From: Arachidicoccus sp.
GTDB lineage: Bacteria; Bacteroidota; Bacteroidia; Chitinophagales; Chitinophagaceae
Direction of reading: 5' to 3'
DNA length: 64,000 nt
Assembly: GCA_028283605.1 (NCBI GenBank)
Contig: JAPWKH010000026.1
Span: 1 to 64,000, forward strand
Under the pieces are notes generated by a model. It made no database searches. It saw only the letters and a program-made list of their open reading frames with translations, and was not told where the DNA came from. Positions 7,041 to 60,926 of this stretch are shown one piece after another. The number at the start of each line of letters is the position of its first letter. The stretch's first letter is position 1. The position numbers and the translations under genes were made by a program.

Positions 7041-7273
7041 AAGTTCTTTCACATAATAAAAATTTAACCCTTACCAGTACGGCAACGGCAGCGAGTTCAA
7101 CGATGTAACGGGCTGGAATGAATATGCTTTACGCGACTACGACCCGCAGATAGGGCGTTTTGTACAAGCCGATCCTTTTGACCAGTTTGCCAGCCCATAT
7201 TTAGGCATGGGCAACGACCCGATAAACAACGCTGACCCAAGCGGGGGATTCTCTGTGCCGGGTGCGTTGATAG
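7041..7273 (+). repeat. Rhs core repeat, copy 1
   Basis: The segment encodes the end of an Rhs core in one open frame from 7060: YQYGNGSEFNDVTGWNEY, then LRDYDPQIGRF, then GMGNDPINNADPSGG. There is no ATG before 7207, and an in-frame TAA lies at 7057-7059. Copies 2 (8977-9213) and 3 (10793-10906) repeat it, including the untranslated lead-in around 7041-7060. This is the conserved boundary after which Rhs C-terminal toxins diverge. Confidence 0.85.
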
Positions 7274-8214
7274 GCTCGGGAACCGGCTTTGTATTGGGCA
7301 TGGCTTATGGATTTTTCCATAACAATGATGGTGGCGCCATGCTAAAAGATGGTCTCATAGGTGCGGCTATCGGTGCGGCTGCAGGAGGATTTAGCGGTGA
7401 TTTGTTTGGTGGTGCAGGCGGAGCGGGCAATGCAAGTATGAGTAATGTATTGAATGCAGTAAGTAGTAAGGCCGCCAACATAGCTCCTATTGCTGTAAAT
7501 GCTGCAAACGGTGCGGCACAAATGACCGGTAATTTTGGAGTGGACAATGCTTATAATCAACAATCTTTTGATAATTTTAAAGGTCAATATGCCGATAACG
7601 TAGAATGGAATGACCTTTCTAAATCTGATTTGACGAATTATTTTAAGTCCACTTTTCACACAGATCCGACAGCAAAACAATTGGGCGACGAATATGAAAA
7701 AATTTATTATAATTGGGAGAATTCACAACCTGAAGCAAAGGGACATAATTTTAAAATGAATAAAGACCCATGGGAAGATGCTAATGATAGGAATACTGTT
7801 CCTGACATGACCGCAACCAAAAATTTTCATCGTTTTGAAAATATTACTCCAGGAAGCCATATTGAAACCATCGAACCAATAAAAAATGGTGCTATTTTTG
7901 AAATAAAATCTGGAAAAAATGGAATTTATTTATCATCTAATGATAAGCAAATTTTAGGACACTTGGATAATTTGGCAGTAAGATTCAAAGAACTAATTGC
8001 AGAGAGATTCAACCCTAGCTTTACACTTGTTACAACTGCTGATGTTCCGTATTCTACTAATATAGGCTCATATGCGTCAAATCTAAAGATTAATTACTAT
8101 CATGACGTAGGACAATATCGAATTATAAAAGGGAGGTGGGAGTTTCGATTTGTTAATAATTTAATAAGGAAATTATGGTGGTCATTTAAACAAGCATTTG
8201 GGCATTCATTATGA
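7207..8214 (+). CDS. Headless Rhs C-terminal tip with nuclease-like toxin domain
   Basis: This is the C-terminal piece of an Rhs protein. The frame is open from 7060 and covers the Rhs core hallmark, but the first ATG is at 7207, inside the core, and the N-terminal delivery part is missing. After the core comes a glycine/alanine-rich hydrophobic linker (PGALIG, AAIGAAAGGFSG) shared with the next cassette, then a unique tip. The tip contains VPD with Asp200, FEIKSGK with Glu232 and Lys234, and Gln248 in KQILGHL. That D...ExK...Q spacing fits a PD-(D/E)xK (Tox-REase-like) nuclease; the motif is seen, the fold is inferred. The stop overlaps the next gene's start (ATGA). Without its N-terminus it is probably a silent cassette used for recombination into a full-length rhs gene, or possibly expressed alone. 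Confidence 0.7.
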   Translation: MGNDPINNADPSGGFSVPGALIGSGTGFVLGMAYGFFHNNDGGAMLKDGLIGAAIGAAAGGFSGDLFGGAGGAGNASMSNVLNAVSSKAANIAPIAVNAANGAAQMTGNFGVDNAYNQQSFDNFKGQYADNVEWNDLSKSDLTNYFKSTFHTDPTAKQLGDEYEKIYYNWENSQPEAKGHNFKMNKDPWEDANDRNTVPDMTATKNFHRFENITPGSHIETIEPIKNGAIFEIKSGKNGIYLSSNDKQILGHLDNLAVRFKELIAERFNPSFTLVTTADVPYSTNIGSYASNLKINYYHDVGQYRIIKGRWEFRFVNNLIRKLWWSFKQAFGHSL

Positions 8215-8942
8215 AATTCATTTTTTTAATCTTAAGTATGTGTATGATGCAGTCAAATTATCAAATATTGTCAGTTTTTGAGTTAAAAAAATATTTGAAT
8301 AAAAACGACAAAACGAGATTTGATTTTTATTTATCTACCAATTTGTGCTTTGTATATTGTTTAAAATCAGGAGAAGTGGTGCTACTACCAAATGAAAGGG
8401 CTGATACTTCTAAAGGAATTTTGTTTTCAGAAAAAAAATACTTTGATGAGTGTGTAGAAAACGACTCTTTCCCAATTGAAAATGAAGGGAAAGGAATGCA
8501 ACAACGCTATCAGGACGAAATAAAAACAATCAACACACAAACAGATAAGATGTTTTATGAGTTAAGTTCGAAATTAAGTCCTAAAGAAATTTTGGATGTA
8601 AACAATATCTCTTCTTTATCAAAATTACTCGATCTTACAAAGAAAAAATGGAAAAAACTTACCACTCAGGAGCAGTTTTATGCTACATTATTATTAGGTG
8701 AGTACGTCAGAAGAACATATAAAGGACGGTGGTTGCTTATAAAAAAATATGGAACATTTAATCCTTATTATGAACCTACCATACTTTATCCGGATAGTTC
8801 AATTTTTGAGTTAGGGCGCTATTTGAATCTGTATTTTAACCATTCAGTAACTCCGGAAATATATGTTACGCTTCCTCTTATAGCAGATCAAGGAATGAAA
8901 TTAAGTTCAATAAATCCGTCTATGTATAAAATATTGGAATAG
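8211..8942 (+). CDS. Candidate immunity protein for the upstream Rhs nuclease-like tip
   Basis: The 243-residue protein begins inside the stop codon of the upstream Rhs tip (ATGA overlap). This is the usual toxin-immunity arrangement. I do not recognise a family. The first 16 residues are hydrophobic (FIFLILSMCMMQ) and might be a weak signal or membrane segment, although a nuclease toxin would be expected to have a cytoplasmic immunity protein. The rest is charged and probably alpha-helical in the middle (residues 90-170). The next Rhs core repeat starts about 35 bases after the stop. The role is inferred from overlap and position only. Confidence 0.55.
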   Translation: MKFIFLILSMCMMQSNYQILSVFELKKYLNKNDKTRFDFYLSTNLCFVYCLKSGEVVLLPNERADTSKGILFSEKKYFDECVENDSFPIENEGKGMQQRYQDEIKTINTQTDKMFYELSSKLSPKEILDVNNISSLSKLLDLTKKKWKKLTTQEQFYATLLLGEYVRRTYKGRWLLIKKYGTFNPYYEPTILYPDSSIFELGRYLNLYFNHSVTPEIYVTLPLIADQGMKLSSINPSMYKILE

Positions 8943-8976: not shown

Positions 8977-9213
8977 AAAAGTACTTTCACATAATAAAAA
9001 TCTAATCTTTACCAGTACGGTAGCGGCAGTGAGTTTAACGATGTAACGGGCTGGAATGAATATGCTTTACGCGACTACGACCCGCAAATTGGGCGTTTTA
9101 TACAGAGCGACCCTTTTGACCAGTTTGCGAGCGGGTATGTTGGCAATGGCAACGACCCGATAAACAATGCCGACCCAAGTGGGGGATTCTCTGTGCCGGG
9201 TGCGTTGATAGGT
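8977..9213 (+). repeat. Rhs core repeat, copy 2
   Basis: This is a near copy of 7041-7273. It encodes YQYGSGSEFNDVTGWNEY, then LRDYDPQIGRF, then GNGNDPINNADPSGG. The same in-frame TAA occurs immediately before the core (8995-8997). The DNA match continues past the core into the linker (ggattctctgtgccgggtgc in both), then is lost. Confidence 0.85.
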
Positions 9214-10191
9214 GCAGGCGCAGGCTATTTTGGTGGTTTAGCATATACGGTTTTCTCGGGCAGAGACCAATTCAAAGATGTATTAATCGGCACTCTTGCA
9301 GGCGCAGTTATCGGTGGTTTTGCGGGTGATATTGGTAATATTAATTTTGGGAGCGGAATCGGCAGCAATGGATTAAGTGCCATGAATAGCAAAGTAGCCA
9401 GCTTTACTTCACTGGGGGTAAAGGCAGCAGATATAACTTTGGCTTTGGTAGCAACCAAATCTCCTGCCAGTTATTTAACACCTACGGTATTGTCTGGTGG
9501 ACCGGGGGTTGCTGTGACAATGGTTAAACCATACACGCCCCCTAGCATTTCTTCGGCTACAAATAACAATGTTTCTTTTGCTAGTAATGATGATGAAAGA
9601 GGAATAACACCTTCGATTCGAAAGGTCTTGGATTATATTTACGACAAGGAAGGAAGAGCGTATGAGGATACACATTCAAAGCCACCAACTGACCAGCCTA
9701 CAAAATTTGGAATAGATTTCGATATTTTTGATGATAATGCAGAAAACGCTTTAGGATTAACCCCATCAGTTACAAATCTGAAGCATTTAACACAAGTACA
9801 AGCAGATAAGTTTTATATGAATGTATATATATTGCCATTTGGTTACGAAAAATTAACTAATTTCCCCATTTTAAATGCTTTATTATCTCAAGCTCCTTTA
9901 GGTCAATACGGAGTGCAGGTTAATGCAAAAAAAGCATTGAATAAAGTTTTAGGAGGAGGATTTGACGTGAATACCAAAGCATTTACAAATTCTCAAGCTA
10001 GAGCAATAAATGGTCTAGGTAACAATACAGTCCAGTACATAAACACTTTTGGAGGTCTTCAATATAATTATTATATGGGGAAATATGATAAAAATCCTAT
10101 TCGAAATAAACAATACATTAATGGATGGATAAACCGTCTAAACGAGTTAATTAATCCCAAATATAATTTACCAGTTAAAAAAAACAAATAA
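9193..10191 (+). CDS. Headless Rhs C-terminal tip with GH108-like muramidase domain
   Basis: The frame is open from 8998 and includes an Rhs core. The only start-like codons are late, such as the GTG used here at 9193, so the delivery part is missing. After the shared Gly/Ala-rich linker, the unique tip from about residue 137 reads like a GH108 N-acetylmuramidase with its peptidoglycan-binding-3 part: helix plus KEG with Glu153 as the candidate catalytic acid, then PTKFGID, LTQVQADKFYMNVY, QAPLGQYGVQVNAKKALN and a C-terminal YINGWINRL. In phage and secreted GH108 enzymes the first motif is EGGY followed by TNFGIT. Here it is KEGRAYED...TKFGID, a diverged match. The predicted target is the periplasmic cell wall of a competitor. 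The stop overlaps the next start by one base. Confidence 0.72.
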   Translation: MPGALIGAGAGYFGGLAYTVFSGRDQFKDVLIGTLAGAVIGGFAGDIGNINFGSGIGSNGLSAMNSKVASFTSLGVKAADITLALVATKSPASYLTPTVLSGGPGVAVTMVKPYTPPSISSATNNNVSFASNDDERGITPSIRKVLDYIYDKEGRAYEDTHSKPPTDQPTKFGIDFDIFDDNAENALGLTPSVTNLKHLTQVQADKFYMNVYILPFGYEKLTNFPILNALLSQAPLGQYGVQVNAKKALNKVLGGGFDVNTKAFTNSQARAINGLGNNTVQYINTFGGLQYNYYMGKYDKNPIRNKQYINGWINRLNELINPKYNLPVKKNK

Positions 10192-10766
10192 TGAAAAACT
10201 ATTTTTTCCTAGACATGATAATTATTCAAACTGCATTAATATTATCTATGATTAGTTGTCAAAATTCTACATCCCTTAAACAAGGCAGTGATTCGATGCA
10301 AATCCATGATACATTAGAGAAATCCGACACTTCCCATCAAACCCAAACATCAATCACTTCGATAGACACTTCAATTATTTCCAAAATAACTGGTGGATGG
10401 TGTTATGTCGAAAAAGACACTTCTGATTCTACTATAATTCTCAAGGACTTTTCATTAACGCTAGTAGAGAAAGGAGATAGTTTATTTGGGGAATATAATT
10501 ATGTTTTTGCTAATGGCAGACATCTAAATTCGTCAGATGGTTGGTCATTTAAAATAAGAAAGGAAATAATTTTAGACAGTTCCACTTTTTTTCCTTTTGA
10601 AAACGCATATGATTATACTACTTTACATTTAAAGTTTGAATATGACAGAAACAATGACGTATTGAAATGGAAAATAAAAGAACCTTATGACAATAACAAA
10701 CATTGGCTACCTAATGAAATTAACTTACATAGGTGTGAACCAGATAAAACTAACAGCCTTAAATAA
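10191..10766 (+). CDS. Lipoprotein, candidate immunity protein for the muramidase tip
   Basis: The ATG shares one base with the stop of the muramidase tip (TAATG), so the pair is translationally coupled. The N-terminus is a lipoprotein signal: a hydrophobic stretch ending in LSMISC, with the lipobox Cys near residue 23. The Ser/Thr-rich spacer after it is typical of a membrane-anchored periplasmic domain. Residues 66-185 look like a small beta-rich domain (GGWCYVEKD, FSLTLVEKGDSLFGEYN). A periplasm-facing lipoprotein is the expected place for immunity against a wall-degrading toxin, which supports both assignments. No known lysozyme-inhibitor family is recognised. Confidence 0.62.
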   Translation: MKNYFFLDMIIIQTALILSMISCQNSTSLKQGSDSMQIHDTLEKSDTSHQTQTSITSIDTSIISKITGGWCYVEKDTSDSTIILKDFSLTLVEKGDSLFGEYNYVFANGRHLNSSDGWSFKIRKEIILDSSTFFPFENAYDYTTLHLKFEYDRNNDVLKWKIKEPYDNNKHWLPNEINLHRCEPDKTNSLK

Positions 10767-40558: not shown

Positions 40559-41123
40559 ATGCAAAACCCACGTTTATCCGGCACTTACGCAAAAAGCCTT
40601 GCCGATGTTGCAGTAGAAACAAATCAGTTTGACAAAGTATATAACGATATGCTTTACATTAAAAATGTATGTAAAGCAAGCAGTGACTTTGTATTGCTGA
40701 TGAAAAGCCCGGTAGTATTTGCAGACAAAAAGCAACAAATATTCACGAAAATCACCAAAGGCAACATTCAGGAATTAACCGCAAAATTTGTTTCTTTATT
40801 AATAAAAAAAGGAAGAGAAAAATATTTGCCCGAAATCGCCGATGCATTCATTACGGAATACAACAAACGAAATGGTATCAATTCGGTAAAAGTAACTACT
40901 GCTGAACCTTTAAGCGAAGAAGCAAGACAGCAACTTCTCCAAAAATTAAAAACGGAAGCTGGTTTTTGATAAAATAGAACTGGAAACTTTTGTAAAAGAA
41001 AAACTGATAGGTGGCTTTGTTTTAGAATATAATAATAATCTTATCGATGCAAGCATAGCACGCGACCTGAAAGATATTAAAAAGCAGTTTCAACAAAATT
41101 TTTATATCCAAAGCATTCGATAA
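40559..41123 (+). CDS. atpH: F-type ATP synthase subunit delta, +1 frameshift
   Basis: Frame 1 runs from 40559 and stops at TGA 40967-40969 after 136 residues, ending KTEAGF. Shifting by one base at the T5 run (40963-40967) lets the frame continue as DKIELETFVKEKLIGGFVL, then NNNLIDASIARDL, to the TAA at 41121-41123. That supplies the missing OSCP C-terminal domain, including the GGFVL...IDASI hallmark. The joined length of about 187 residues is normal for the family. So there is one extra T, either a real mutation, a homopolymer sequencing error, or a TTT-TGA slip site. Delta joins F1 to the b stalk and is needed for a working enzyme. That makes an error or recoding more likely than loss. 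Confidence 0.9.
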
Positions 41124-41159
41124 AATATTTTCAAATACTATATAAACTATAAATAGAAT

Positions 41160-50406: not shown

Positions 50407-50480
<74 letters not shown>

Positions 50481-50494
50481 CGATGAAAATCAAT

Positions 50495-50633: not shown

Positions 50634-51969
50634 TCACTTCCCTACACTCGTACCCTTCACGATATTGTAATAAAAACGCTGAAGTAAGCGCATATTCTTT
50701 GTAATCACAAGTGCATCAGCTTTAAGACCATTCTTGTATTGAATAGTTTTATGTTGATTTGTTTGTAAGCCATCACTAAGTTGAACAATAGCAAGGTAGC
50801 CACTATCAGAAGCAACTTTAGATATATAATTGAGATTACCTTTTACAAAACCGACTTCCTGATAAGGGTAAGCATCGAAACGAAGCTGCACCTGCATTCC
50901 CGAATCAATCTTACCAAGATTATTTTGCGGTAAATAAACCTGAGCATAGAATTTACTATCCGATGGATTTACATAACCCAATAATTTTCCTTGTTCGATG
51001 AATTGATTTTGCTGCAATGGTTGATTAAAAAAGATTGTACCATTCAATGGTGCAGTAATAATGTATTGATGTTTCCAATCATCTACATTACTCTTTAAAG
51101 TTTGTAATGCTTGCTCAAAAGTTATTTTTTGTTGAGCAACATCATGATTCAATTGTTCTAATTCTTTTAGCTTATCTCTTTGTTGATTTTGATTAGAAAG
51201 AATACTGGAATTAATTTGCGGTATCGACATTTGCTTATTGACCAATTTGCTTTGCTCTTGTCGGTATTCTTCGGCAGAAATTACTTTCTCATCAAACAAG
51301 TTTCTTATTCATAGCATAAGTTTGTTGAGAAAGTTCATTGTCCTGCTCGGTTAATTGTTTTTGTTGCTTTAAAGAACTATTCATCTGATTAATGGCAGAC
51401 ATGTCATTCAATATCATATTTTTTTGACGGGCATAGAACCCATTAACTAAATAATCGTTGAATTGCTGCAAAGCAGTTGAATAAGTTTGATAGGATGATT
51501 GAAGGCTTCCGAGATTTTGAAAATGTTCGTTAAATAATGCAGCAATTTTATCAACTTTGCCAAGCGCAAGCAGGTGAGTACTGCTATCCAACTGTTTAGA
51601 TAACTTTAAAGCTTCTTCTGGATTGGCAGTACTTTCTATCCAACCAATCATATCGTCTTGTTTTACCGGATGTCCGTTTTGGACAAATAATCTTATCAAC
51701 CTTCCTGTTTGTAAAGGCATGATTTCTTTTGGTCCATTATACGCCGAAAGGGTTGCTCTTGTTTGTACAATATCGGGATATCGGATAAACCATGTTCCTG
51801 CAAGCAAGGCAAGCAAAACACCTAAGAAAATAAATAGAGCCCACTTTTCTACAAAATCAGGCTTGCGGCTGATAATTTCTTGTGCAGAGTCAGAACGATT
51901 TTGGAAATTTCCAACAGCGATGGTTTTAAAATCATCATTTATATAAATTTTTGTGTCTGTTTTTGGCAT
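50634..51969 (-). CDS. HlyD-family adaptor of the peptide exporter, +1 frameshift
   Basis: The gene is split into two frames of 225 and 221 residues. The first ends MNKKLV at a TGA. Skipping one base at about 51297-51302 continues as FDEKVISAEEYRQEQ, and the total then fits a normal adaptor of about 444 residues. Features are a cytoplasmic start, one membrane helix (LFIFLGVLLALLAGTWFIRY), the lipoyl-like half QTGRLIRLFVQNGHPVKQDD, a coiled coil, the second lipoyl half ITAPLNGTIFFNQPLQQNQFI, and beta-barrel GMQVQLRFDAYPYQEVGF. This is the membrane-fusion partner of the C39 ABC exporter just upstream. The extra base is either a true mutation or a sequencing indel. Confidence 0.88.
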
Positions 51970-52050
51970 ATTGTTTTTGTTTTTCTATTAACTTGAAGAC
52001 GTACAATGCGACTTCAAGCTGCAAAACACTTTATAAAATCAAAGCAAATT

Positions 52051-54304
52051 TTAATTTCCCAACTCCAATTGATTTTTCACCAATTCATAATATTTCCCTT
52101 TAACGGAAGTCAGATATTCATGTGTACCTTCTTCTACAATTTTGCCTTTATCCAAAACCACAATTTTATCCGCATTCTTTACTGTGCTTAGTCTGTGTGC
52201 AACTACAACAACGGTTTTACCAGTAAAGAACTTTTCAAGATTTTCAACAATTTCTTTTTCATTGTTGGCATCTAAAGAATTAGTGGCTTCATCGAAAAAC
52301 AAATATTCGGGATTTTTATAAACAGCTCTCGCAATAAGCAAGCGTTGTTTTTGTCCTTGACTTAATCCCGTTCCTTCACTTCCAAGCTGTGTATAAAAAC
52401 CATTAGGCAAAGATTCTATAAAAGAATAAATATTGGCAATTCTACAAGATTGAATTAGTTTTTCATATTCGATTTCTTCTTGACCAACTGCGATGTTTCT
52501 TGCAATCGTGTCATTGAAAATATAACCGTCTTGCATTACCGCTCCGCAAATTTGTCGCCAATAACTATGACTTATATAATCAAAACGAGTGCCACCCTCG
52601 AAACTGTTATTTGTTATTTGTTTTCCGGTATCCATTTTCAATTGCTCATTATCAATTGCTCCGATTCTTATTTCTCCATCATATTGTTCATATACTTTCA
52701 AAAGAATTTTTAATAAAGTTGTTTTGCCGCTTCCGCTAATACCTACAATCGCTGTCACTTTTCCTTGAGGAATGTATAAATTAATATTTTCTAAAACAGG
52801 GTCGTTACTGACTCCGGGATAAGTAAAAGAAAGATTGTTGAACGCAATACTTTTGTTATCCGATAATTGTTGGACATACATTTTTTTAGCATCTTCTTCA
52901 TCGGGCAATTGATGAATTTCATTTAAACGCTCCATACTTATTTTTGCATCCTGCGCACTTTGTACAAAACCAACCCATTGCCCGATTGGCCCGCTTAACT
53001 GCCCGATGATGTATTGCACGGCAAGCATAGATCCAAGTGTTAATTGCCCGTCAATTACTAATTTGGCAACGATAAAACTGATCGCAATATTCTGTATTTG
53101 ATTAATGAGTGTTGCGCCTGCTGATTGCCATTGACTGTAATTGAGTGTTTTGAAATTCAGTTTAAAAACAGAAGCCTGTATATTCTCCCAATCCCAACGT
53201 TTTTGTTTTTCTGCGTTGTTTAATCTTATTTCCTGCATTCCTTGTACTAATTGCAAAGTGGCATTGTTTTCTTTGGAAGAAAGATGAAAAGTTTGATAAT
53301 TTATCTTTCTACGAATGCGCAAGAATATTTGCACCCAAGCAAAATAGATAAGACTGCCAATCATAAAGACAAAGAATAATTCTACATTGTACATCATCAA
53401 TACAATAGCATATACCACAAAAGTAAAAACAGAAAACATCGTGTTTAATGCCGTTCCTGTCAAGAAAGTTTTGAATAGTTTTATGGTCACCGATTCTTTG
53501 TAAAGTATCGCCTGTATGATATACATCAAAATAAGAAAGGGGTAATCTTGTGAGCTTTATCCAAAAATCCGAAAGAATCTGAATATTCAGAATATTGGAT
53601 ATTCGTAATAACAATCGACTGCGAATAAAATCAACAATGGTTTGACTGAATGTAAGCATGAGTTGTGCTATCAATACAATCACAACAAATTGCAGGTTCT
53701 GTGTATTAATGCCGGTATCCACGATGCTTTGTGTAAGAAACGGAACAACTAATTGAAGTAGCGAAGTAATAATCAACGCGATAAAAACTTGGGTGATTTG
53801 AAAACGACTTTGTGCTAAATATTGAAACACCAATCTCCAACTTAGTTTGTGTTCTTTCTCTCCGTCTGCATCAAAGAAAACGGGCGTGGTTTCTAAAAGC
53901 AAAGCAACACCCACTTGTTCTCCTTCGGTTTCCGAAGAAATCCAATGGTGCAAAAAATCATTTTTAGATAAAGTAATTACACCCTTTCCCGGGTCAGCAA
54001 TCTTTGCTTTGTTTTTGGAAATATCTGTCAACACCACAAAATGATTTTGATCCCAATGCAGAATACAAGGAAGTGCTATTTGGGATAATTGGAAATAATC
54101 AATTTTTACACCTCTTGTTCTGAAACCGATATTTTCTGCAGTCTCGCTTATGCCAAGTAGCGAAACTCCTTCTTTACTGAATCCTGTTCTTTGTCTTAAT
54201 GTATCTGCATTATAATGCCTCCCATAGTATTTAGCCACCATCCTTAAACAGGTTGGCCCACAGTCCATTGCGTTTAATTGTTTGTAGTAAGGGAAGGGCT
54301 GCAT
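52051..54304 (-). CDS. C39-peptidase-containing ABC exporter (PCAT), +1 frameshift
   Basis: The N-terminal C39 protease has Cys15 (MDCGPTC), His88 (DQNHFVVL) and Asp104 (IADPGKG), so it looks active against GG leaders. The ABC membrane domain follows. The first frame goes off-track after KTIQNFL near 53458-53462. One base of shift resumes as TGTALNTMFSVFTFVVY. The ATPase has Walker A GISGSGKTT, signature LSQGQKQRLLIARA and Walker B YLFFDEATNSLD. The joined length of about 750 residues is normal. The protein removes the leader and exports the peptide across the inner membrane with HlyD. The two genes are 81 bases apart. Confidence 0.92.
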
Positions 54305-54347
54305 TGTAAAATCGAATTAATTCATCAAAAATAGATCGAAGAGAAAT

Positions 54348-55493
54348 TTAATGAAGTGAGTTTAAAAAATTATCTAACTCTTGTCCATAAATGTTTTGTT
54401 TTATTATCTTACCATTGGCATCTACGACAACATTGAAAGGAATAGATTCCAATCTCAAATACTTTACAACGGGAGATTCCATTGCTTTTAAATCGCTAAT
54501 TTGCAACCAATTGGTTTTATCTTCATTAATTGCTATTTTCCAGGACTCGCCAGAATTATCCAAAGAAACTCCCACCAAAAAAACGCCTTTTTCTTTAAGT
54601 AAAAGCTCCTTTTTTATTAAATCTTGATTGATTCTCCTACAGGGCCCACACCAACTTGCCCAAAATTCTATTAGTGAATATCTATGTCGTTTATAAAAAT
54701 TCTTATTTAAAGTATAGTTGTTAAAAGCTGTATCAATTCCTATAATAGTTGGTAATTCAGCTTCTTTTTCATTATTCTTTTCATTGGCTTCTACGTTTTT
54801 TGTAGCCATAAGACGACTGTAAAAATTTCTTCCATAGAAAGAATTTTTTACGCTATCTGGAAGGGATAGATACATTAGATAATATTTCTTGTACGAAAAA
54901 TCGGGAATATTAGGAAAAGCATAAGCTACAAGATAACTTCCTGGGTTTTCTTTGGCGAATTTATCATATATTATTATAAGGCTATCATCAATCTCCTTTA
55001 TTTTAGTGGCATAAAAAAACATACTATCTCTACTTTGGGTGTGCTGTAAAGAATCTTGTAGTAAACTTTTACGTTCATTCAATGGAACTCGTATCTTTCT
55101 AAGATTGTCAAATTTATTATAGAAAACCGATTTTGTTTTAATTTCTCCTCTATATTCTCTATTTGCACTATCATCTTCAACAAGGGATAAATAAAATTCA
55201 TATCTACTATTATCTATATCGAAAGAAAAACCGCCATATTTATACTCAAGCATTGCAATAGATGGATAAGGCACTTGACCTTTAATTTCAAACGAATCGT
55301 TTTTTATATATGCTGTATCGATTTTCGAAATATTTAAAAAACGCAAAATAACTGTATCATTGTCTTTTAAATTCGATTTGCCTAATGGTTCTATTTTGTT
55401 GTTAATATATCCCTTAATGTCAAAATTATATTGAGCAAACGTACTTAGGGTAAAAAAATAATTTAATATTAAAATGAATAATATTCGTTTCAT
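54348..55493 (-). CDS. TlpA-like thiol-disulfide oxidoreductase with DUF4369-like N-terminus
   Basis: The 381-residue protein has a signal peptide (ILFILILNYFFTLSTFAQ) and an N-terminal beta domain (residues 22-110) like the DUF4369 region common in Bacteroidota TlpA proteins. It then has a helical linker and a thioredoxin fold with SWCGPC and a cis-Pro loop (LESIPFNVVVD). It is periplasmic. Lying between peptide 2 and the exporter, it probably acts on disulfides of the exported cysteine-rich peptides; direction (oxidation, isomerisation) cannot be read from sequence. Confidence 0.87.
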   Translation of the reverse strand: MKRILFILILNYFFTLSTFAQYNFDIKGYINNKIEPLGKSNLKDNDTVILRFLNISKIDTAYIKNDSFEIKGQVPYPSIAMLEYKYGGFSFDIDNSRYEFYLSLVEDDSANREYRGEIKTKSVFYNKFDNLRKIRVPLNERKSLLQDSLQHTQSRDSMFFYATKIKEIDDSLIIIYDKFAKENPGSYLVAYAFPNIPDFSYKKYYLMYLSLPDSVKNSFYGRNFYSRLMATKNVEANEKNNEKEAELPTIIGIDTAFNNYTLNKNFYKRHRYSLIEFWASWCGPCRRINQDLIKKELLLKEKGVFLVGVSLDNSGESWKIAINEDKTNWLQISDLKAMESPVVKYLRLESIPFNVVVDANGKIIKQNIYGQELDNFLNSLH

Positions 55494-55519
55494 ATATTAT
55501 GTTTATTCTACAAAATTAA

Positions 55520-55561
55520 GCAAAGAAAAAGGGTATAAGTAACCCTTATAAACTTATACCC
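55520..55561 (-). terminator. Hairpin with U-tract after peptide 2 (attenuator-like)
   Basis: Perfect ten-base arms gggtataagt (55531-55540) and acttataccc (55552-55561) lie 8 bases past the peptide 2 stop. On the minus strand the hairpin runs into TTTTTC. Partial termination here would make more peptide mRNA than exporter mRNA. Confidence 0.75.
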
Positions 55562-55568
55562 TAATCAA

Positions 55569-55865
55569 TTAATCTGCAATGGTACTTTGAGTAAATGTAT
55601 AGCTATAATTTGCACAATCCCCACCTGCTTGATTTGCGCCTTGACAATATGTGTTACAGCCACTTTTACAGTCAGCATCTGTTGTCCACTGGCTTGTAAC
55701 GTTATCAGGTAAAGATAACTTTACCCCTCCTGAACTTTTTAAAGTACAAGAGCAAGAGGTCGATCCTCCTGATGGCGCTATTCCACCCAAAACGTTTTTC
55801 ATTTGTTCTCTTGAGAGAACTGTACCGCCTGCAAAATTGTGCAGGTCAAATTTTCTTTTGTGCAT
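55569..55865 (-). CDS. Double-glycine-leader cysteine-rich peptide 2
   Basis: The 98-residue precursor has a 28-residue leader MHKRKFDLHNFAGG then TVLSREQMKNVLGG, with cleavage expected after Gly27-Gly28. It shares the xKFxLHxFxGG...LSREzMKNVxGG pattern and exact length with peptide 1. The mature 70 residues hold six Cys (38, 40, 66, 70, 74, 84), so three disulfides are possible. No lanthionine or radical-SAM enzyme is nearby. Together with the C39 exporter and thiol oxidoreductases, this suggests a disulfide-stabilised secreted peptide (bacteriocin or signal). Its core is not a recognised family. Confidence 0.82.
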   Translation of the reverse strand: MHKRKFDLHNFAGGTVLSREQMKNVLGGIAPSGGSTSCSCTLKSSGGVKLSLPDNVTSQWTTDADCKSGCNTYCQGANQAGGDCANYSYTFTQSTIAD

Positions 55866-55942
55866 TTTTTAAATTTAAAATTTAATAAATAACAGCCTTA
55901 TTATTTTAATAAGACCGACTTTCTTTCTATTTATAGTCGACA

Positions 55943-56434
55943 TTAAACAGAAAAAAAATATTTTAAATCAGCTACCGAATATTGCTCCGGTAACTGATAC
56001 GAATTTACAAAAAATGTAGGCGTAAAAGCTATTTCCGTTTTATAACACCAATCACTCATCGCTTTTATCTTACTGCCCTGCTGCTTTAATTCTCCGTTTA
56101 TCGGATATTTAGCGGCAAAAGCAGCGTAATCTTTCTTTTTTGAAATATCAATCAAAACTACAAAGTGATTTTGATCCCAATGAAGAATGCAGGGAAGCGT
56201 TATGTCTGAAAGTTGAAAATAATCAATCTTTACACCTCTCGTTCTGAATCCTATCTTCTCGGCTGTTTCACTGATACCGAGTAGCGTAACGCCTTGCTTA
56301 CTGAACCCTGCTTTTTGGCGAAGCGTATCTGCGTTATAATGCCTTCCATAATGCTTGGCCACCATGCGCAAGCAAGTTGGCCCGCAATCCATGGCATTCA
56401 ACTGTTTGTAGTAGGGAAAGGCATTAACTCGCAT
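55943..56434 (-). CDS. Chimeric ORF: C39 peptidase N-part fused to thioredoxin C-part
   Basis: Residues 1-97 parallel the N-terminus of the PCAT (NAFPYYKQLNAMDCGPTC; Cys17 and His90 kept). From about residue 98 the sequence switches to the C-terminus of the VKOR-thioredoxin protein (KKDYAAFAAKYPINGEL, TEIAFTPTFFVNSYQLPE, VADLKYFFSV). The catalytic Asp of C39, the whole ABC part and the thioredoxin CxxC are absent. Both halves differ clearly at DNA level from the intact genes in this cluster. It therefore probably formed by an in-frame deletion between a second, diverged exporter gene and a following VKOR gene. It is likely non-functional, or at most a peptide-binding remnant. Confidence 0.85.
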   Translation of the reverse strand: MRVNAFPYYKQLNAMDCGPTCLRMVAKHYGRHYNADTLRQKAGFSKQGVTLLGISETAEKIGFRTRGVKIDYFQLSDITLPCILHWDQNHFVVLIDISKKKDYAAFAAKYPINGELKQQGSKIKAMSDWCYKTEIAFTPTFFVNSYQLPEQYSVADLKYFFSV

Positions 56435-56452
56435 TTATAATTTGAGTAATTT

Positions 56453-58795
56453 TTATTCTATTATCTTTTCGACATATACAGGCGTTCCGTCCGCTTTTAA
56501 CCCTTCTATTATTACCCTGAACTTCTTTGAATAGTCATTGTTATAAAAGGATATTTTCACTTTTTTATTATCTTTATCATCCATCCCCATTTGCGGATTC
56601 CAGTACAAAGTTTTGCGCTTATCTGTAATACTATCGTTTTCTGTGTTATAAGCAGGCTCGTAAAACTTTTTGGATATAGTATAACCAATTATTATGTTTC
56701 TTTGTTTTGTATCGTTTTCGCCTTTTTCTGCCTGAGAAAACTTTTTGGTATAAATAGCAATCACACCTCTTGGTAATTTCGTATCTGTTGTTACACCTCC
56801 GCCTCCCGGCGCTAAAACAAAGTAATCTGGAAAATATTTTATAAATGCTATGTCTGGATAAGATATTGTATTATTCACAACATCAATTGGTATGAGGGAT
56901 TCATCTACAAAAACATATGGAGGAGAAACCTTGCTGTCATTTAATCGTGGTACTCTTCCCCGTAATAAATCTATAATGGAACTTCTAGGCCCACCATAAC
57001 TATACAATATCGGGTTATTTTCTAAGACTACTCTGTACCCTGGAGCATTTTTAAAAACAGAACTTGCATATATATCTTCAATACTATCCATTGTTGTTTT
57101 TCTTGTAGCAGTAACCGTAACTGTGGTCAGCATTTTGCCCGATGTATCTCCATAATAATGATTCAACCATTGAGATACACGAATGGTAGCGTGTCCATTT
57201 GCCTTAAACAATTCAAACGGATATTCATTAAATGCTGCTTGGGGTAATTGTTCAAAATTTAAAGTAAGATGACTTTGCTTGCCAGGATGATAAGCCAGCT
57301 TCGTAGTGTCTGCAATTATCATGGTACTATCTGCAAAACTGCCGTCTTTGTTTGTTTTTACATTATACTTTCCAAAACCGATTCTGTCGTTGAGGATAAA
57401 AGAAAGACTATCAGGATAATGTTTCTTTTTATCTGCAATATTTCCTCTCAGAAAAAAATAATTACTGTCTCTCGGATATTTTATTGCTGGTTGAGTTCCC
57501 TGAGCTATTTCATGCCAATTGTATTTTCTCCAGCCATTCGTCAGCATTACCAAATCAAGTTGTTGTTGTCTTGTAGATGTTGTGTCTTCAAAATAATAAG
57601 CAGGATTAATGATTTTGCCTTTTAATTGTCCTGTCAAAAGCAGGTAGGTAATAATATTTTCGGTTGAATCGTTTGGAATATCGGCATCTGTTACAGCTAT
57701 GGATAAATCGGTGGCTATGCTGTCATCATAATTTAACGTAATGCTGTTCAATCCTTTTTTTTCTGTGCTTGTTTTTTCTATGGAGAGATTTGGTAAATGA
57801 CTGTCAATATCATTACCTCTTACAAAAGAAATGCGTTCTGTCAAAGGATGCCAGTCTTTGTCTAAAACAGTAAAAGTAATAATGCCAGAAGGCAGGTCAT
57901 TGGTCGGAATGATGGATACTGCGCTGTCTCTTGTGCTGAGGTCTATTTTGGCAAGATAGTCCACTATGCCGTTCATCGTAGCAAGCAAATAAACCTGACT
58001 GAGTTGTTCTGTGTTGTGTTTTTGGATAATGATTTTTCTCTTGTCTTGTTCTAAGAGAACCTGCATATTAACTCCCCATGATTGAGCTTCGGGTAGATTA
58101 ACTGTTGGTTTAGTTGAATCATATTCGGCAACATAAGTTGTTGTTGCTTTCGGTGTAAGATAAAAAGTGCCCATGCCGTCATGTATGGTTATGAAACTTG
58201 TAACAGAATCGTTATGGTTATCCTTGATGGTTCCGTTGAGTTCTATCGGGTTACCAAACTGGTCGGTTGCCTTAAATGCGACTTTATTCTGTACGCCTGC
58301 AACTAAATTACCGCCTTCGGGGAAGAATTGTAAAAGTATTTTTTGTGGTTCTGTTTTTTGTATAGGCAAACTTGCTTTGGCAGAAAGAACAGGAATTGTT
58401 TTATGAAACAGATATGCCGTATCATCATTGAGCATCCATCTTGTATAGGCAAGCACTTCTATCTGATTACCCTCGATTGTTTGAGGAATGGCAAACTGTC
58501 CGTAAGTTGCTCCCTGTACAATCGGGTAAGCCTGGTGCTGCAACAGCTTACCTGTGGCATCGAACCAATCTACATAAAGGTTCTTACTATAAGAAGATAC
58601 AAAACCATTAGCAGTTAAATAGCCTTTAAACCACACCGTGTCATCAGCCGAATATAAATTGTTGTCTAAATGAAGATACACTCGCTCAAAAGGATGCCCG
58701 CTGAAATAATCATTCAGAGTTTTATCTATTGTTTGAGCGTTTATAATAGACAAAAAACATAAAGAATAACTTAAACTGAAAATCTTTTTCCTCAT
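56453..58795 (-). CDS. Large secreted protein with MG2-like and TonB-plug-like regions
   Basis: The 780-residue protein has a signal peptide (SLSYSLCFLSIINAQ). Near the N-terminus HPFERVYLHLDNNLYSADD and WFKGYL are typical of Bacteroidota proteins with macroglobulin-like MG2 domains. Near residues 560-690 there is a TonB-receptor plug-like stretch (VTVTATRKTTMDS, IIDLLRGRVPRL, PYVFVDESLIP, GVIAIYTKK) but no beta-barrel after it. It lies in the peptide cluster, 18 bases upstream of the chimera. It might help the peptide cross or dock at the outer membrane; that role is inference. Confidence 0.7.
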   Translation of the reverse strand: MRKKIFSLSYSLCFLSIINAQTIDKTLNDYFSGHPFERVYLHLDNNLYSADDTVWFKGYLTANGFVSSYSKNLYVDWFDATGKLLQHQAYPIVQGATYGQFAIPQTIEGNQIEVLAYTRWMLNDDTAYLFHKTIPVLSAKASLPIQKTEPQKILLQFFPEGGNLVAGVQNKVAFKATDQFGNPIELNGTIKDNHNDSVTSFITIHDGMGTFYLTPKATTTYVAEYDSTKPTVNLPEAQSWGVNMQVLLEQDKRKIIIQKHNTEQLSQVYLLATMNGIVDYLAKIDLSTRDSAVSIIPTNDLPSGIITFTVLDKDWHPLTERISFVRGNDIDSHLPNLSIEKTSTEKKGLNSITLNYDDSIATDLSIAVTDADIPNDSTENIITYLLLTGQLKGKIINPAYYFEDTTSTRQQQLDLVMLTNGWRKYNWHEIAQGTQPAIKYPRDSNYFFLRGNIADKKKHYPDSLSFILNDRIGFGKYNVKTNKDGSFADSTMIIADTTKLAYHPGKQSHLTLNFEQLPQAAFNEYPFELFKANGHATIRVSQWLNHYYGDTSGKMLTTVTVTATRKTTMDSIEDIYASSVFKNAPGYRVVLENNPILYSYGGPRSSIIDLLRGRVPRLNDSKVSPPYVFVDESLIPIDVVNNTISYPDIAFIKYFPDYFVLAPGGGGVTTDTKLPRGVIAIYTKKFSQAEKGENDTKQRNIIIGYTISKKFYEPAYNTENDSITDKRKTLYWNPQMGMDDKDNKKVKISFYNNDYSKKFRVIIEGLKADGTPVYVEKIIE

Positions 58796-58902
58796 ATCAA
58801 GATAATTAACACATTAGAATATTAGGCAGGATTTCTCTCTATTACAGCTATTTATAAATAAGCTAAAATATAAAGAAAAATCCTACCTTGCTTTGCTTCT
58901 TG

Positions 58903-59130
58903 CTAAACAGCTTCGTCACACCTGTAAACTATATTGTCATTGGACAATGAATACCCATTACAAACCAAGCCAGGACAGCAAGCCTTTCCAGAAACCTCAT
59001 CACATGCTCCATTCAAATTGGCACAAGTACCACCCGGCTCCGGATTTCCACCGGTAACATTTTTCATTTCTTCTCTTGAGAGCCTTCTACCGCCCGTAAA
59101 ATCGTGCAGGCTAAATTTTTTGTTTTGCAT
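58903..59130 (-). CDS. Double-glycine-leader knottin-like peptide 1
   Basis: The 75-residue precursor has the leader MQNKKFSLHDFTGG then RRLSREEMKNVTGG, with predicted cleavage after Gly28. The 47-residue core has exactly six Cys at 36, 43, 51, 52, 57 and 71: spacing C-x6-C-x7-CC-x4-C-x13-C, with ACCPGLVCNG around the doublet. That spacing meets the inhibitor-cystine-knot pattern of animal and plant knottins. The knot itself is inferred. It sits between the VKOR-thioredoxin gene and the MG2/plug gene, all on one strand, so folding enzymes and product are encoded together. Confidence 0.8.
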   Translation of the reverse strand: MQNKKFSLHDFTGGRRLSREEMKNVTGGNPEPGGTCANLNGACDEVSGKACCPGLVCNGYSLSNDNIVYRCDEAV

Positions 59131-59282
59131 TTTAATGAAATTTAATTTGTAAAAAATGAAATTTATTCTTTTACCACTTTGGCAGGTATCGCCTCAAATA
59201 TTGCGACAATTGTGGCAATGTTTGAAAAGGTATTTATTGACTTTAATTTTTCATTACCTCCTTTTTCTTTTTTTAAGTTTTT

Positions 59283-60926
59283 TTAAACAGAAAGAAAATA
59301 TTTTAAATCGGCTACCGTGTATATTTCCGGCAACTGATAACCATTTACAAAAAATGTAGGCGTAAAAGCAATTTCCGTTTTGCTGCACCATTCAGCCATC
59401 GCATTTATCTTATCATCTTGACGCTTCAATTCGCCATTCATTGGATATTTCGCTGCAAATGCTTCATAGTCTTTTTTATCTGCCAAATACCAATCATCTA
59501 ATGCTTGTTTCGTTTGTTGTTCATTGTTTTTTTCATTTATGGCAAGTAAGTGCTTTACTGGTGGAGTTTTGAAGTCTTTTTCATCGTCCGTCGCTGTGAA
59601 AAGAATTTGAACTTGCACTTCAGTATTATTTTCCAATAATTCTTCAATTGCAGGATGTGCCCTAGCACATGGACCGCAATATGGGTTACATACTTTTACG
59701 AGTTTGTATTTTGCATTCGGATTGCCCAAACTTATTCCCAAACCATCTGTTGGTTCAGTAATAGTTTTTTGTTTTACAAGCAGCGCTTCAAATATTTGCG
59801 GATTGTGTTTTAAGCGTTGGAGTTCATTCTTGTTTTGTTTGTTTTCTTTGGCTTGGCGCAAAGCAGGCAACAAAAGGCTTACTACTAAAAAAGGAATGGA
59901 AAAGAAAACAAGAATTGTAGCAACACTCGATATTTGAATGTTTGATAAATTGTCAACAATATGAAATTCTCCAAATAAAGCCGTGATAAATTGCAATGCA
60001 AGAATTACTTGTACAGTTAAACATAATACACACCATTGCTTGGCAATTCTTGATTGATAATATATAGAGAATAGAATATAGGGAAAAGCCAGTACATTTA
60101 ACCAAAAAAGAATAAATAATATGGAAGTATTATAAATTCCCGAAACTAAAAGACTTATTAAACTGCCTGCGAAATAAGTAAAACCAATCGCACTCCAACT
60201 AATACCGAAAATCTTAGAAGCAGTAGAACTAAGTATAGCATTACAATTAGTTTTGCTTCCGCCTGTACATATTTGTTGCAATGCTGCATTATATTTATCT
60301 ACTTCGTACCAAAGCAATAATGTACCAACGATTGTTCCTGCAAGTGTGAGTATTGCGTACAATATAGACCAAACAGAATCTATTCCATTTTTTGCAAAAC
60401 AAATACCACAAGCAATTATCGTTAAAATGGGAACGACAGCAACTGAAAGTATCTTGGTTAATTGCAATCGCTTTTCTTCTTGTAAGTGCGTGGTATAATC
60501 CTTCTCGCCTGCGGTGTCTGATTTCTCTGCAAGCAATACAATACCTGTAAATATTTTATCGAATTCAGCTTTTGAAAAAGTTGTTTCTTTCTTTTCCAAA
60601 GGATGGTAAAATTTTATTGAATCGTTTTCAACATTTGATACAACACAAAATAAACTTTCGTACCCTACTTTTATTTGTGCAATAAATGGTGTTGGAAATT
60701 CATTCAAAGAATTTATATCGGATTTAAGGGCAATATTTTCTATTCCTATGTTTTTTAAAACATCGCTTACAGATAACAAACTCGTATAATCAGGATGTTC
60801 TTCTAATTGTTTTTGAATGGTTGTTTTGGTAACGAGAATCTCTAATTTCTGACAAAGCATAAAAGTTACACTCTCAGGATTTCCATAAGGAGAAAGAAGG
60901 TCTTTTAAGGTTCGAATTGGGTGCAT
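59283..60926 (-). CDS. C39-like / VKOR / thioredoxin fusion membrane protein
   Basis: The 547-residue protein has three parts. Residues 1-140 look like a C39 peptidase fold without the catalytic Cys-His pair (degenerate, possibly leader-binding). Residues 165-360 form a VKOR domain with several helices, a loop Cys pair (CTGGSKTNC) and the redox motif WCVLC. The C-terminus is a thioredoxin domain with CNPYCGPC and a TPTFFVNGYQLP cis-Pro loop. VKOR-Trx fusions oxidise thiols using membrane quinone. First in the transcription order and next to peptide 1, it is the probable disulfide-forming engine of the cluster. Confidence 0.88.
   Translation of the reverse strand: MHPIRTLKDLLSPYGNPESVTFMLCQKLEILVTKTTIQKQLEEHPDYTSLLSVSDVLKNIGIENIALKSDINSLNEFPTPFIAQIKVGYESLFCVVSNVENDSIKFYHPLEKKETTFSKAEFDKIFTGIVLLAEKSDTAGEKDYTTHLQEEKRLQLTKILSVAVVPILTIIACGICFAKNGIDSVWSILYAILTLAGTIVGTLLLWYEVDKYNAALQQICTGGSKTNCNAILSSTASKIFGISWSAIGFTYFAGSLISLLVSGIYNTSILFILFWLNVLAFPYILFSIYYQSRIAKQWCVLCLTVQVILALQFITALFGEFHIVDNLSNIQISSVATILVFFSIPFLVVSLLLPALRQAKENKQNKNELQRLKHNPQIFEALLVKQKTITEPTDGLGISLGNPNAKYKLVKVCNPYCGPCARAHPAIEELLENNTEVQVQILFTATDDEKDFKTPPVKHLLAINEKNNEQQTKQALDDWYLADKKDYEAFAAKYPMNGELKRQDDKINAMAEWCSKTEIAFTPTFFVNGYQLPEIYTVADLKYFLSV

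What the first reader, a model, noticed from the sequence alone, without database searches (positions are those of the whole stretch)
50634..60926. Dedicated export and oxidative-folding locus for cysteine-rich GG-leader peptides
Seen: eight same-strand genes comprising two double-glycine precursors with six Cys each, a C39-peptidase ABC exporter, HlyD, a TlpA-like thioredoxin, a C39-like/VKOR/Trx fusion and a secreted MG2/plug protein. Known: C39 exporters cut GG leaders, and VKOR-Trx fusions make disulfides. Inference: the locus makes, oxidises and exports disulfide-locked miniproteins, with no classic RiPP-modifying enzyme present. The combination of VKOR and knottin-like cargo may be an undescribed bacteriocin or signalling system.
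Basis: partly seen in the sequence, partly recalled or inferred. Interest (0 to 1): 0.9.

Follow-up and report, generated by a model that had tools for sequence, protein, structure and literature searches.

The report
Factory for disulfide-locked bacterial miniproteins
This stretch of a Bacteroidota genome carries a peptide-making kit, recurrent in its phylum, in which a membrane enzyme appears to grip small cysteine-rich precursor peptides and lock them with disulfide bonds, probably inside the cell and before they are exported.

Summary
On the minus strand, 60926-50634, lie a C39-like/VKOR/DsbA-like fusion, two double-glycine precursors with six cysteines each, an MG2-like secreted protein, a TlpA-like thioredoxin, a C39 ABC exporter and HlyD. 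The 'C39/Trx' ORF (56434-55943) is a deletion chimera. Exporter and HlyD genes are each split by a frameshift, possibly assembly error, because atpH in the window is split too.

The association is real. Of 86 loci with the fusion, 62 have the exporter and 57 strict cysteine-rich GG-leader peptides; 101 of 105 distinct cores have 4, 6 or 8 cysteines. Around C39 exporters, GG ORFs with at least six cysteines occur in 16 of 23 stretches with the fusion and 2 of 57 without. All 18 genomes found with NCBI's 'bacteriocin-like' leader NF047798 carry the fusion.

New inference: the fusion's N-terminal domain is a C39 fold lacking the catalytic residues, and in 75 of 75 homologues positive charges cluster on the active-site side, opposite to the four canonical VKORs examined. 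It probably docks leaders and makes disulfides at the cytoplasmic face before export; one AlphaFold2 feature disagrees. Peptide activity is unknown. Closest known: bacteroidetocins.

The parts
59283..60926 (-). Fusion oxidase, 547 aa: degenerate C39-like domain (about 1-140), two hydrophobic helices, VKOR domain (C220, C228, C299, C302) and DsbA/ScsC-like thioredoxin domain (C417GPC420)
   Evidence: Pfam VKOR 3.5e-14, Peptidase_C39 6e-14, Thioredoxin_4 1.6e-9; these six Cys invariant in 75 of 75; AlphaFold2 mean pLDDT 94.9; C39 and DsbA folds
58903..59130 (-). Precursor 1, 75 aa: leader ending GG at 28, then a six-Cys core with inhibitor-cystine-knot-like spacing
   Evidence: Toxin_7 3.6e-4, below cut-off; NF047792/NF047798 similarity, below cut-off; relatives aligned; model mean pLDDT 67, residues 41-75 71-83; top PDB matches are animal toxins, E 0.08 or worse
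56453..58795 (-). 780-aa MG2-like protein with apparent signal sequence, role unknown; homologue in 10 of 86 loci
55943..56434 (-). In-frame chimera of about the first 100 residues of an exporter C39 domain and the last 67 of a VKOR fusion: deletion remnant
   Evidence: a more decayed remnant of the same make at C9; none detected in 167 loci
55569..55865 (-). Precursor 2, 98 aa: same leader type, six-Cys core of another scaffold; a similar core start (SCSCTL) occurs in Mucilaginibacter rigui (L096, eight Cys)
54348..55493 (-). TlpA-like thioredoxin with DUF4369, apparent signal sequence and WCGPC motif; homologue in 30 of 86 loci
53309..54304 (-). N-terminal part of the C39 peptidase ABC exporter (catalytic C15, H88, D104 present)
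   Evidence: Peptidase_C39 4.6e-36; conservation in 53 sequences
52051..53529 (-). C-terminal part of the same exporter (membrane and ATPase domains) in another frame
51292..51969 (-). N-terminal part of the HlyD adaptor
50634..51299 (-). C-terminal part of the HlyD adaptor in another frame
   Evidence: HlyD_3 4.7e-12

Best explanation
The locus belongs to a recurrent Bacteroidota system that makes hypervariable, disulfide-rich miniproteins from double-glycine precursors. Proposed order: (1) precursor with conserved leader [seen in sequence]; (2) the degenerate C39-like domain of the fusion binds the leader without cutting it [inferred from fold and loss of catalytic residues]; (3) the VKOR and DsbA-like domains of the same protein oxidise the core, passing electrons to quinone [inferred from family and invariant cysteines], probably on the cytoplasmic face because C39-like domain, VKOR cysteines and thioredoxin domain lie on the same, positively charged side of the membrane [inferred from sequence, bias in 75 of 75]; (4) the C39 ABC exporter cuts after GG and exports the folded product through HlyD and an outer-membrane channel [inferred from family]; (5) the exported TlpA-like protein reshuffles or protects disulfides in some loci [guess]. 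The products are most likely narrow-spectrum bacteriocins, less likely signals [inference from leader type and scaffold diversity]. In this strain the local exporter genes look broken; either the assembly is wrong or export relies on another copy (the C9 exporter also looks broken).
For: Neighbourhood: 86 loci with the fusion: exporter 62, HlyD 51, strict Cys-rich GG peptide 57. Parity: 101 even versus 2 odd among 103 distinct cores with at least 4 Cys, against 269 versus 126 in control ORFs of the same loci; 93 spacing patterns. Stretches around C39 exporters: a loose GG ORF with at least 6 Cys in 16 of 23 with the fusion versus 2 of 57 without; strict peptides with at least 4 Cys 25 of 40 versus 1 of 20. 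NF047798 leader in 18 of 390 genomes, all 18 among the 40 of 395 with a near-full-length fusion (read by eye). Of 47 distinct cores behind NF047798 leaders from five such genomes, 42 have an even number of Cys (2, 4, 6, 8), 39 of them at least four; 5 have five. In one search, 32 of 32 fusion genomes have a C39 exporter, about 50 of 264 others (by eye). Fusion: catalytic Cys position is Asn in 55 of 75, no conserved His; six redox Cys 75 of 75; folds. Topology: two hydrophobic 17-residue windows before the first VKOR Cys in 75 of 75; K+R 15.6 per 90 residues on the active-site side versus 1.0 per 32 on the other, same sign in 75 of 75; four canonical VKORs (two genera) show the opposite (by eye).
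Against: Nothing biochemical was measured. The AlphaFold2 model draws residues 144-209 as one unbroken helix, whereas two membrane helices are needed for the same-side topology; the dip between them is below zero (7-residue hydropathy) in only 56 of 75. 16 of 87 loci showed no peptide even with loose criteria (some are short contigs), and 14 of 40 strict GG peptides in fusion stretches of the control set have no Cys. One convincing 8-Cys GG peptide (L195) sits by an exporter in a genome without the fusion. Five of 47 NF047798 cores have five Cys (four of these one family) and three have two. Exporter and HlyD are split here. No immunity gene and no target are known.
Confidence: 0.67

Rival explanations
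1. Same system, but conventional orientation: the fusion's VKOR and DsbA-like domains face the periplasm and oxidise the peptides after they cross the inner membrane.
For: Canonical VKOR and DsbA enzymes work in the periplasm (established knowledge; the four proteins fit it); bacteroidetocin loci carry a thiol oxidoreductase thought to make the disulfides (PMC6671954); AlphaFold2 shows one continuous helix 144-209, which as a single span would restore this topology.
Against: Charge bias 75 of 75 the other way; the leader is removed at the inner membrane, so a periplasmic domain could not see it (family knowledge); HlyD-type export bypasses the periplasm (family knowledge); no signal sequence is apparent before the C39-like domain (read by eye).
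Confidence: 0.27
2. The fusion is a general disulfide-forming enzyme that merely sits beside peptide genes.
For: 16 of 87 loci show no peptide, 2 of 48 long-flank loci neither peptide nor exporter.
Against: Patchy distribution (0 of 5 same-genus genomes; 40 of 395 in the phylum); exporter in 32 of 32 fusion genomes; cysteine-rich GG peptides tied to the fusion; even a divergent, split fusion on a Parabacteroides plasmid between housekeeping genes has a six-Cys GGG-type small ORF, annotated hypothetical, about 1.2 kb upstream.
Confidence: 0.06
3. The cysteines are for thioether or other RiPP chemistry (lanthipeptide-like or radical-SAM) rather than disulfides.
For: LanC-like and galactosyltransferase-type genes at C9, lantibiotic dehydratase near an Emticicia locus; weak TIGR04149 similarity.
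Against: No such enzyme among the ten proteins of this locus; even Cys parity and ICK-like spacing fit Cys-Cys pairing; a dedicated redox enzyme instead.
Confidence: 0.07
4. At this particular locus the system is dead: frameshifted exporter, frameshifted HlyD and a C39/Trx chimera mark a decaying array.
For: a second, more decayed C39/VKOR-tail remnant with stops at C9.
Against: atpH, normally an indispensable gene, is split the same way, so indel errors are likely; precursors and fusion are intact.
Confidence: 0.35

Closest known systems
Bacteroidetocins (proposed class IIf; Coyne et al. 2019, PMC6671954; passages and sections 7 and 14 read)
   Same: Bacteroidota GG-leader peptides with disulfides, C39 ABC exporter, locus-encoded thiol oxidoreductase whose deletion attenuates activity
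   Different: Theirs: 15-16 aa leader, mature peptides of about 42-48 aa in the closest members, four Cys in A and B (at least two in all), four genes including an uncharacterised five-TM protein. Here: 28-aa leaders, cores mostly of 6-8 Cys in 93 spacing patterns, one C39-like/VKOR/DsbA fusion, HlyD, TlpA. Whether their TM protein is a VKOR was not tested
NCBIfam NF047798 (bacteriocin-like leader) and NF047792 (CCPGW putative bacteriocin)
   Same: Related leader and, for CCPGW, a C..C..CC..C-type core; every genome found here with NF047798 has the fusion
   Different: The entries as shown by the tool name only precursors; the window's precursors score below or at the cut-off
C39 exporters (PCAT1) and C39-like domain of HlyB (PDB 3zua)
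   Same: The fusion's N-domain has the C39 fold without the catalytic residues, like the HlyB C39-like domain (Z 14.1)
   Different: Here it is attached to a VKOR-DsbA oxidase, not to an ABC transporter
VKORC1/thioredoxin protein of PDB 3kp9/4nv6 (cyanobacterial, recalled)
   Same: VKOR four-Cys core plus thioredoxin domain
   Different: First matched Cys near residue 50, room for about one helix before it, canonical orientation (recalled), no C39-like domain
Inverted VKOR/DsbB (Hatahet and Ruddock 2013; only title in reference lists and one passage citing it seen; content recalled)
   Same: Disulfide enzymes can be made to face the cytoplasm
   Different: There engineered (or archaeal, recalled); here it would be natural and peptide-dedicated
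Inhibitor-cystine-knot (knottin) toxins
   Same: Cys spacing of precursor 1; top structural neighbours (that these are ICK is recalled)
   Different: No significant homology; connectivity unknown; most cores of the system do not fit the ICK pattern (13 of 105 do)

Membership tests
VKOR family | Loop Cys pair plus CxxC, VKOR domain | tested here: met
   Pfam PF07884 53.5 bits over 27.5; C220, C228, C299, C302 in 75 of 75
VKOR family | Active site on the periplasmic side, as in canonical bacterial members | tested here: inconclusive
   Charge bias says no in 75 of 75, four canonical members as contrast, but AlphaFold2 shows one continuous helix 144-209; needs experiment
C39 peptidases | Catalytic Cys, His, Asp in the fusion's N-domain | tested here: not met
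   Aligned Cys position is Asn in 55 of 75, Cys not among its six commonest residues; Cys at neighbouring position 17 in 11 of 75; no conserved His. The fold itself is C39
C39 peptide exporters (PCAT/type I) | C39 catalytic triad, ABC membrane and ATPase domains | tested here: met
   Domains found, in two frames in this assembly; triad C15 53 of 53, H88 53 of 53, D104 52 of 53
C39 peptide exporters (PCAT/type I) | Outer-membrane TolC partner | not tested
   not searched
Bacteroidetocins | 15-16 aa leader and four-Cys-like core of 42-48 aa | tested here: not met
   28-aa leaders, six Cys against PMC6671954 section 14
Bacteroidetocins | Five-TM accessory protein | not tested
   sequence of their TM protein not compared
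Bacteroidetocins | Kills Bacteroidales, BamA target | not testable with these tools
   PMC8546649 seen as search listing only
NF047798 leader | Score over 23.5 bits | tested here: inconclusive
   Precursor 1 scores 22.8 as a protein and 23.7 in the genome search; precursor 2 18.5
TIGR04149 rSAM-modified RiPP | Score over 25 bits | tested here: not met
   18.7 for precursor 1
Lanthipeptides | LanB/LanM/LanC enzymes in the cluster | tested here: not met
   None among the ten proteins of the locus; LanC-like at C9
Inhibitor cystine knot | ICK Cys spacing (ranges recalled) | tested here: met
   Precursor 1, C-x6-C-x7-CC-x4-C-x13-C
Inhibitor cystine knot | ICK fold | tested here: inconclusive
   Model pLDDT 67; ranks 1-6 in PDB are animal toxins (ICK, recalled) with E 0.08-0.75
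Inhibitor cystine knot | 1-4, 2-5, 3-6 disulfide connectivity | not testable with these tools
   needs chemistry or a structure

The most novel reading that the evidence does not exclude
A natural, peptide-dedicated disulfide factory in the bacterial cytoplasm: an inward-facing VKOR-DsbA fusion uses a dead C39 peptidase domain as a leader receptor, oxidises venom-like, hypervariable miniproteins before export, and hands them to a C39 exporter; genomes of one lineage (f24/g109) scatter 20 or more such precursors that share it in trans.
Probability: 0.5. Interest if true: 0.88.

Novelty: new variant of a known kind. Interest (0 to 1): 0.78.

Why it matters
It would give a large, mostly unnamed set of Bacteroidota peptides (those on the Emticicia plasmid are annotated 'hypothetical protein') a common maturation machine and a search handle, the fusion. 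If the topology is right, it would show that bacteria fold disulfide cargo in the cytoplasm with a natural inverted VKOR, which would explain how exporters that bypass the periplasm can deliver disulfide peptides. It also suggests a genetically encoded way to make knottin-like peptides in bacteria.

Tried and rejected
Programmed frameshifting in exporter and HlyD: rejected, exporters elsewhere are single ORFs (52 intact ones of 650-820 aa) and other genes of the assembly are split too. The C39/Trx ORF as a functional small enzyme: disfavoured; one search found no such junction in 167 loci, and one search shows a more decayed one at C9 (missed because too short). Bacteroidota promoter motif (-33/-7, recalled): no match to the TTTG form on the strand of the genes, two loose matches inside genes, not used. 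First leader pattern was miscounted and found nothing, corrected (four places). On dispersed NF047798 peptides, a first regex was too strict (3 ORFs), a second found 21 ORFs in 15 of 40 regions (20 even, one with 1 Cys probably spurious); both are superseded, which reads on from each of the 48 leader hits (47 distinct cores: 2 Cys 3, 4 Cys 13, 5 Cys 5, 6 Cys 25, 8 Cys 1). A script for canonical VKORs printed nothing, replaced by a plain listing read by eye; these four were the VKOR-only rows I saw in the capped list, three of them of one genus. Solved-sequence search with precursor 2 gave only weak, unrelated matches. No match in phage records. No VKOR entry appears among the 50 rows shown, which says nothing; the VKOR relation rests on sequence. 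Literature: ten searches in open-access PMC listed no paper that I recognised as describing a C39-like/VKOR/thioredoxin fusion with GG peptides; subscription papers and preprints are largely not covered. Papers: PMC6671954 passages and sections 7, 14; PMC10352776, PMC4555120, PMC4460558, PMC5471842 passages; the rest search listings only.

Limits of counts. The strict leader regex was written after seeing the window's leaders and favours that type; the control uses it on both arms, that a looser one. In genomes with several exporters I usually took the one nearest the fusion, so the fusion arm is enriched for its own locus by choice. Loose matches include evident chance ORFs (for example in L048, L064, L091, L103) and were not added to the 57. 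The window's own two precursors are not in the 105 cores. A single very long hydrophobic stretch would also pass the two-window test; membrane segment borders were set by eye. Counts of genomes were made by eye from capped listings; G395, with only a broken fusion, was left out of the 40 (if counted as 'other', 51 of 264). Relatedness was not corrected; genus g109 supplies 6 of the 18 genomes, so the hypergeometric value (2.5e-20) overstates the evidence.
Full report
What is there. The window is part of contig C3 of a 3.59 Mb draft genome in 35 contigs. On the minus strand, in transcription order: fusion oxidase (60926-59283), precursor 1 (59130-58903), MG2-like protein (58795-56453), a C39/Trx chimera (56434-55943), precursor 2 (55865-55569), TlpA-like thioredoxin (55493-54348), C39 ABC exporter (54304-52051, in two frames) and HlyD (51969-50634, in two frames), followed by a tRNA-Ala on the plus strand at 50407-50481. 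Both precursors have six cysteines after the double glycine. Contig C9 holds a second fusion (66% identity), a C39 exporter, HlyD and three more GG-leader genes.

Damage or error. Exporter and HlyD are each split by one change of frame. The same kind of break occurs in atpH of this window, in the C9 exporter and probably in one C9 precursor, so assembly error is likely, decay not excluded. The C39/Trx ORF is different: 79% DNA identity to the start of the window's exporter over 291 bases and 79% to the end of the fusion gene over 214 bases, in one frame. It is best read as the scar of a deletion between neighbouring cassettes. One search found no such junction in 167 other loci; one search shows a shorter, decayed one at C9.

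Is the association real? A scan of reference genomes gave 77 loci with a relative of the fusion, and ten more loci came from the own genome and unnamed relatives; 86 of the 87 contain the fusion. Of these 86, 62 have the exporter, 51 HlyD, 57 a strict GG-leader peptide with at least four Cys, 30 the TlpA-like protein and 10 the MG2 protein. With at least 9 kb on both sides (48 loci): exporter 40, peptide 34, both 28, neither 2. The strict rule found 106 peptides, 105 distinct cores: 76 with six Cys, 21 with eight, 4 with four, and one each with 0, 1, 7 and 9. Among those with at least four, 101 are even and 2 odd; small control ORFs in the same loci, which include chance frames, are 269 even and 126 odd. 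The cores use 93 spacing patterns; 13 fit an ICK-type pattern. The number of cysteines is held even while the scaffold varies, as expected for disulfide pairing.

Controls. I took one stretch around a C39 exporter from each of 80 unnamed Bacteroidota genomes, before looking at peptides: 50 without and 30 with the fusion (in genomes with several exporters usually the one nearest the fusion). Sorted by presence of the fusion in the stretch these are 57 and 23. Strict GG peptides without the fusion: 20, with Cys counts 0 (6), 1 (2), 2 (9), 3 (2), 4 (1), mostly glycine-rich and hydrophobic. With the fusion: 40, with 0 (14), 2 (1), 4 (10), 6 (11), 7 (1), 8 (3). Stretches with a looser GG ORF of at least six Cys: 16 of 23 versus 2 of 57. 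One of those two (L195) is a convincing exception. The fourteen without Cys are mostly a family with GNG-type tails, so the exporters are not limited to disulfide cargo. Independently, NCBI's leader model NF047798 was found in 18 of 390 genomes and all 18 are among the 40 of 395 with a near-full-length fusion, read from the listings. In genus g109 up to 22 leader genes, the scoring cap of the tool, are scattered through one genome. Reading on from 48 such leader hits in five genomes gave 47 distinct cores: 2 Cys in 3, 4 in 13, 5 in 5, 6 in 25, 8 in 1; four of the five odd ones are one family. In the exporter survey 32 of 32 fusion genomes have a C39 exporter (split in the own genome), against about 50 of 264 others (by eye).

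Wider occurrence. Eight plasmid records carry the fusion. On an Emticicia plasmid two cassettes of fusion, six-Cys GG peptide(s) and TlpA stand in tandem. On a Parabacteroides plasmid the fusion is annotated as two genes; a small ORF upstream, annotated hypothetical, has a GGG and six Cys. No phage record matched. None of five same-genus genomes has the fusion.

The fusion protein. Its six redox cysteines (C220, C228, C299, C302, C417, C420) are invariant in 75 sequences. The N-terminal domain has the C39 fold (ComA peptidase Z about 15, HlyB C39-like domain 3zua Z 14.1; profile match to PCAT1 3e-8) but not its catalytic residues: the Cys position is Asn in 55 of 75, the His is not conserved, and a HPDYPSLLxISD motif is conserved instead. 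The exporters keep Cys, His and Asp. A dead C39 domain that keeps the leader-binding fold suggests a leader receptor. The C-terminal part resembles ScsC/DsbA (Z about 17).

Topology. Between the C39-like domain and the first VKOR cysteine there are two hydrophobic windows in 75 of 75; the solved VKOR-thioredoxin protein has room for about one helix there. Two helices put C39-like domain, both VKOR cysteine pairs and thioredoxin domain on one side. On that side K+R average 15.6 in 90 residues, on the other 1.0 in 32; the bias has this sign in 75 of 75, also without the cysteine loop. Four canonical VKORs of the phylum (two genera) without the C39-like domain show the reverse: 3 to 5 positive residues in the loop that is bare here and none in the loop before CxxC, which has two in the window's protein (by eye). 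By the positive-inside rule the fusion faces the cytoplasm. This agrees with logic: leaders exist only in the cytoplasm, and a HlyD-type exporter gives the periplasm little access to the cargo (family knowledge). Against it: AlphaFold2 draws 144-209 as one helix; the region has a polar dip below zero in 56 of 75 and polar or charged residues at the dip in 72 of 75, Pro in 27.

Knottin question. Precursor 1 has ICK-like spacing; its closest solved sequences are small animal toxins at E about 0.08; the model (mean pLDDT 67, 71-83 from residue 41) has a two-strand hairpin; structure ranks 1 to 6 are spider and sea-anemone toxins, E 0.08 to 0.75 (that they are ICK is recalled). Suggestive, not significant. 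Precursor 2 is another scaffold.

Compared with what is known. The nearest described system is the bacteroidetocins (PMC6671954, passages and two sections read): C39 exporter, thiol oxidoreductase, GG leader, but shorter leader, fewer cysteines and a different accessory protein. NCBI curators have named parts of the cargo. Ten open-access searches listed no paper that I recognised as describing the fusion with its peptides. I therefore rate it a new variant of a known kind, with a potentially new mechanism (cytoplasmic oxidation by a leader-docked, inverted VKOR).

What remains open: whether peptides are made, their disulfides, activity, immunity, the role of TlpA and MG2 proteins, and whether this locus still works.

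Noticed in passing
40559-41140: atpH (ATP synthase delta) is split by a frame change at a run of T, a sign of indel errors in this assembly.
   Followed up: yes
55943-56434: In-frame chimera of exporter C39 domain and VKOR-fusion tail; a shorter, decayed remnant of the same make around G000:C9:76472-76579.
   Followed up: partly
L123 9605-12379 (G000:C9): LanC-like gene, a galactosyltransferase-type gene and a 287-aa gene without Pfam hit next to the second exporter and a six-Cys GG peptide.
   Followed up: partly
L162 (Emticicia oligotrophica plasmid pEMTOL02): Two tandem cassettes fusion - GG peptide(s) - TlpA on a plasmid, with lantibiotic dehydratase, LanC-like and DUF6734 genes nearby; the peptides are annotated hypothetical.
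   Followed up: partly
L163 6582-9531 (Parabacteroides distasonis plasmid): Fusion annotated as two genes between housekeeping genes; upstream a small ORF with GGG and six Cys and a 6-bladed beta-propeller gene, downstream a galactosyltransferase-related gene.
   Followed up: partly
L228, L230, L234, L236, L237, L240: Cysteine-free GG-leader peptides, most with short Asp/Pro/Gly/Asn-rich (GNG-type) tails, six in tandem in L237, near fusion and exporter loci.
   Followed up: no
L195 1238 (-): Convincing 8-Cys GG-leader peptide near a C39 exporter in a genome without the VKOR fusion: which enzyme oxidises it?
   Followed up: no
7207-8942 and 9193-10766: Two ORFs with PGALIG-type starts, the first with an Rhs-like NDPINNADPSGG segment (motif recalled), each followed by a small gene: possible orphan Rhs tips with immunity genes.
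   Followed up: no
G001-G005: None of five same-genus genomes has the fusion, which suggests horizontal gain or loss.
   Followed up: no
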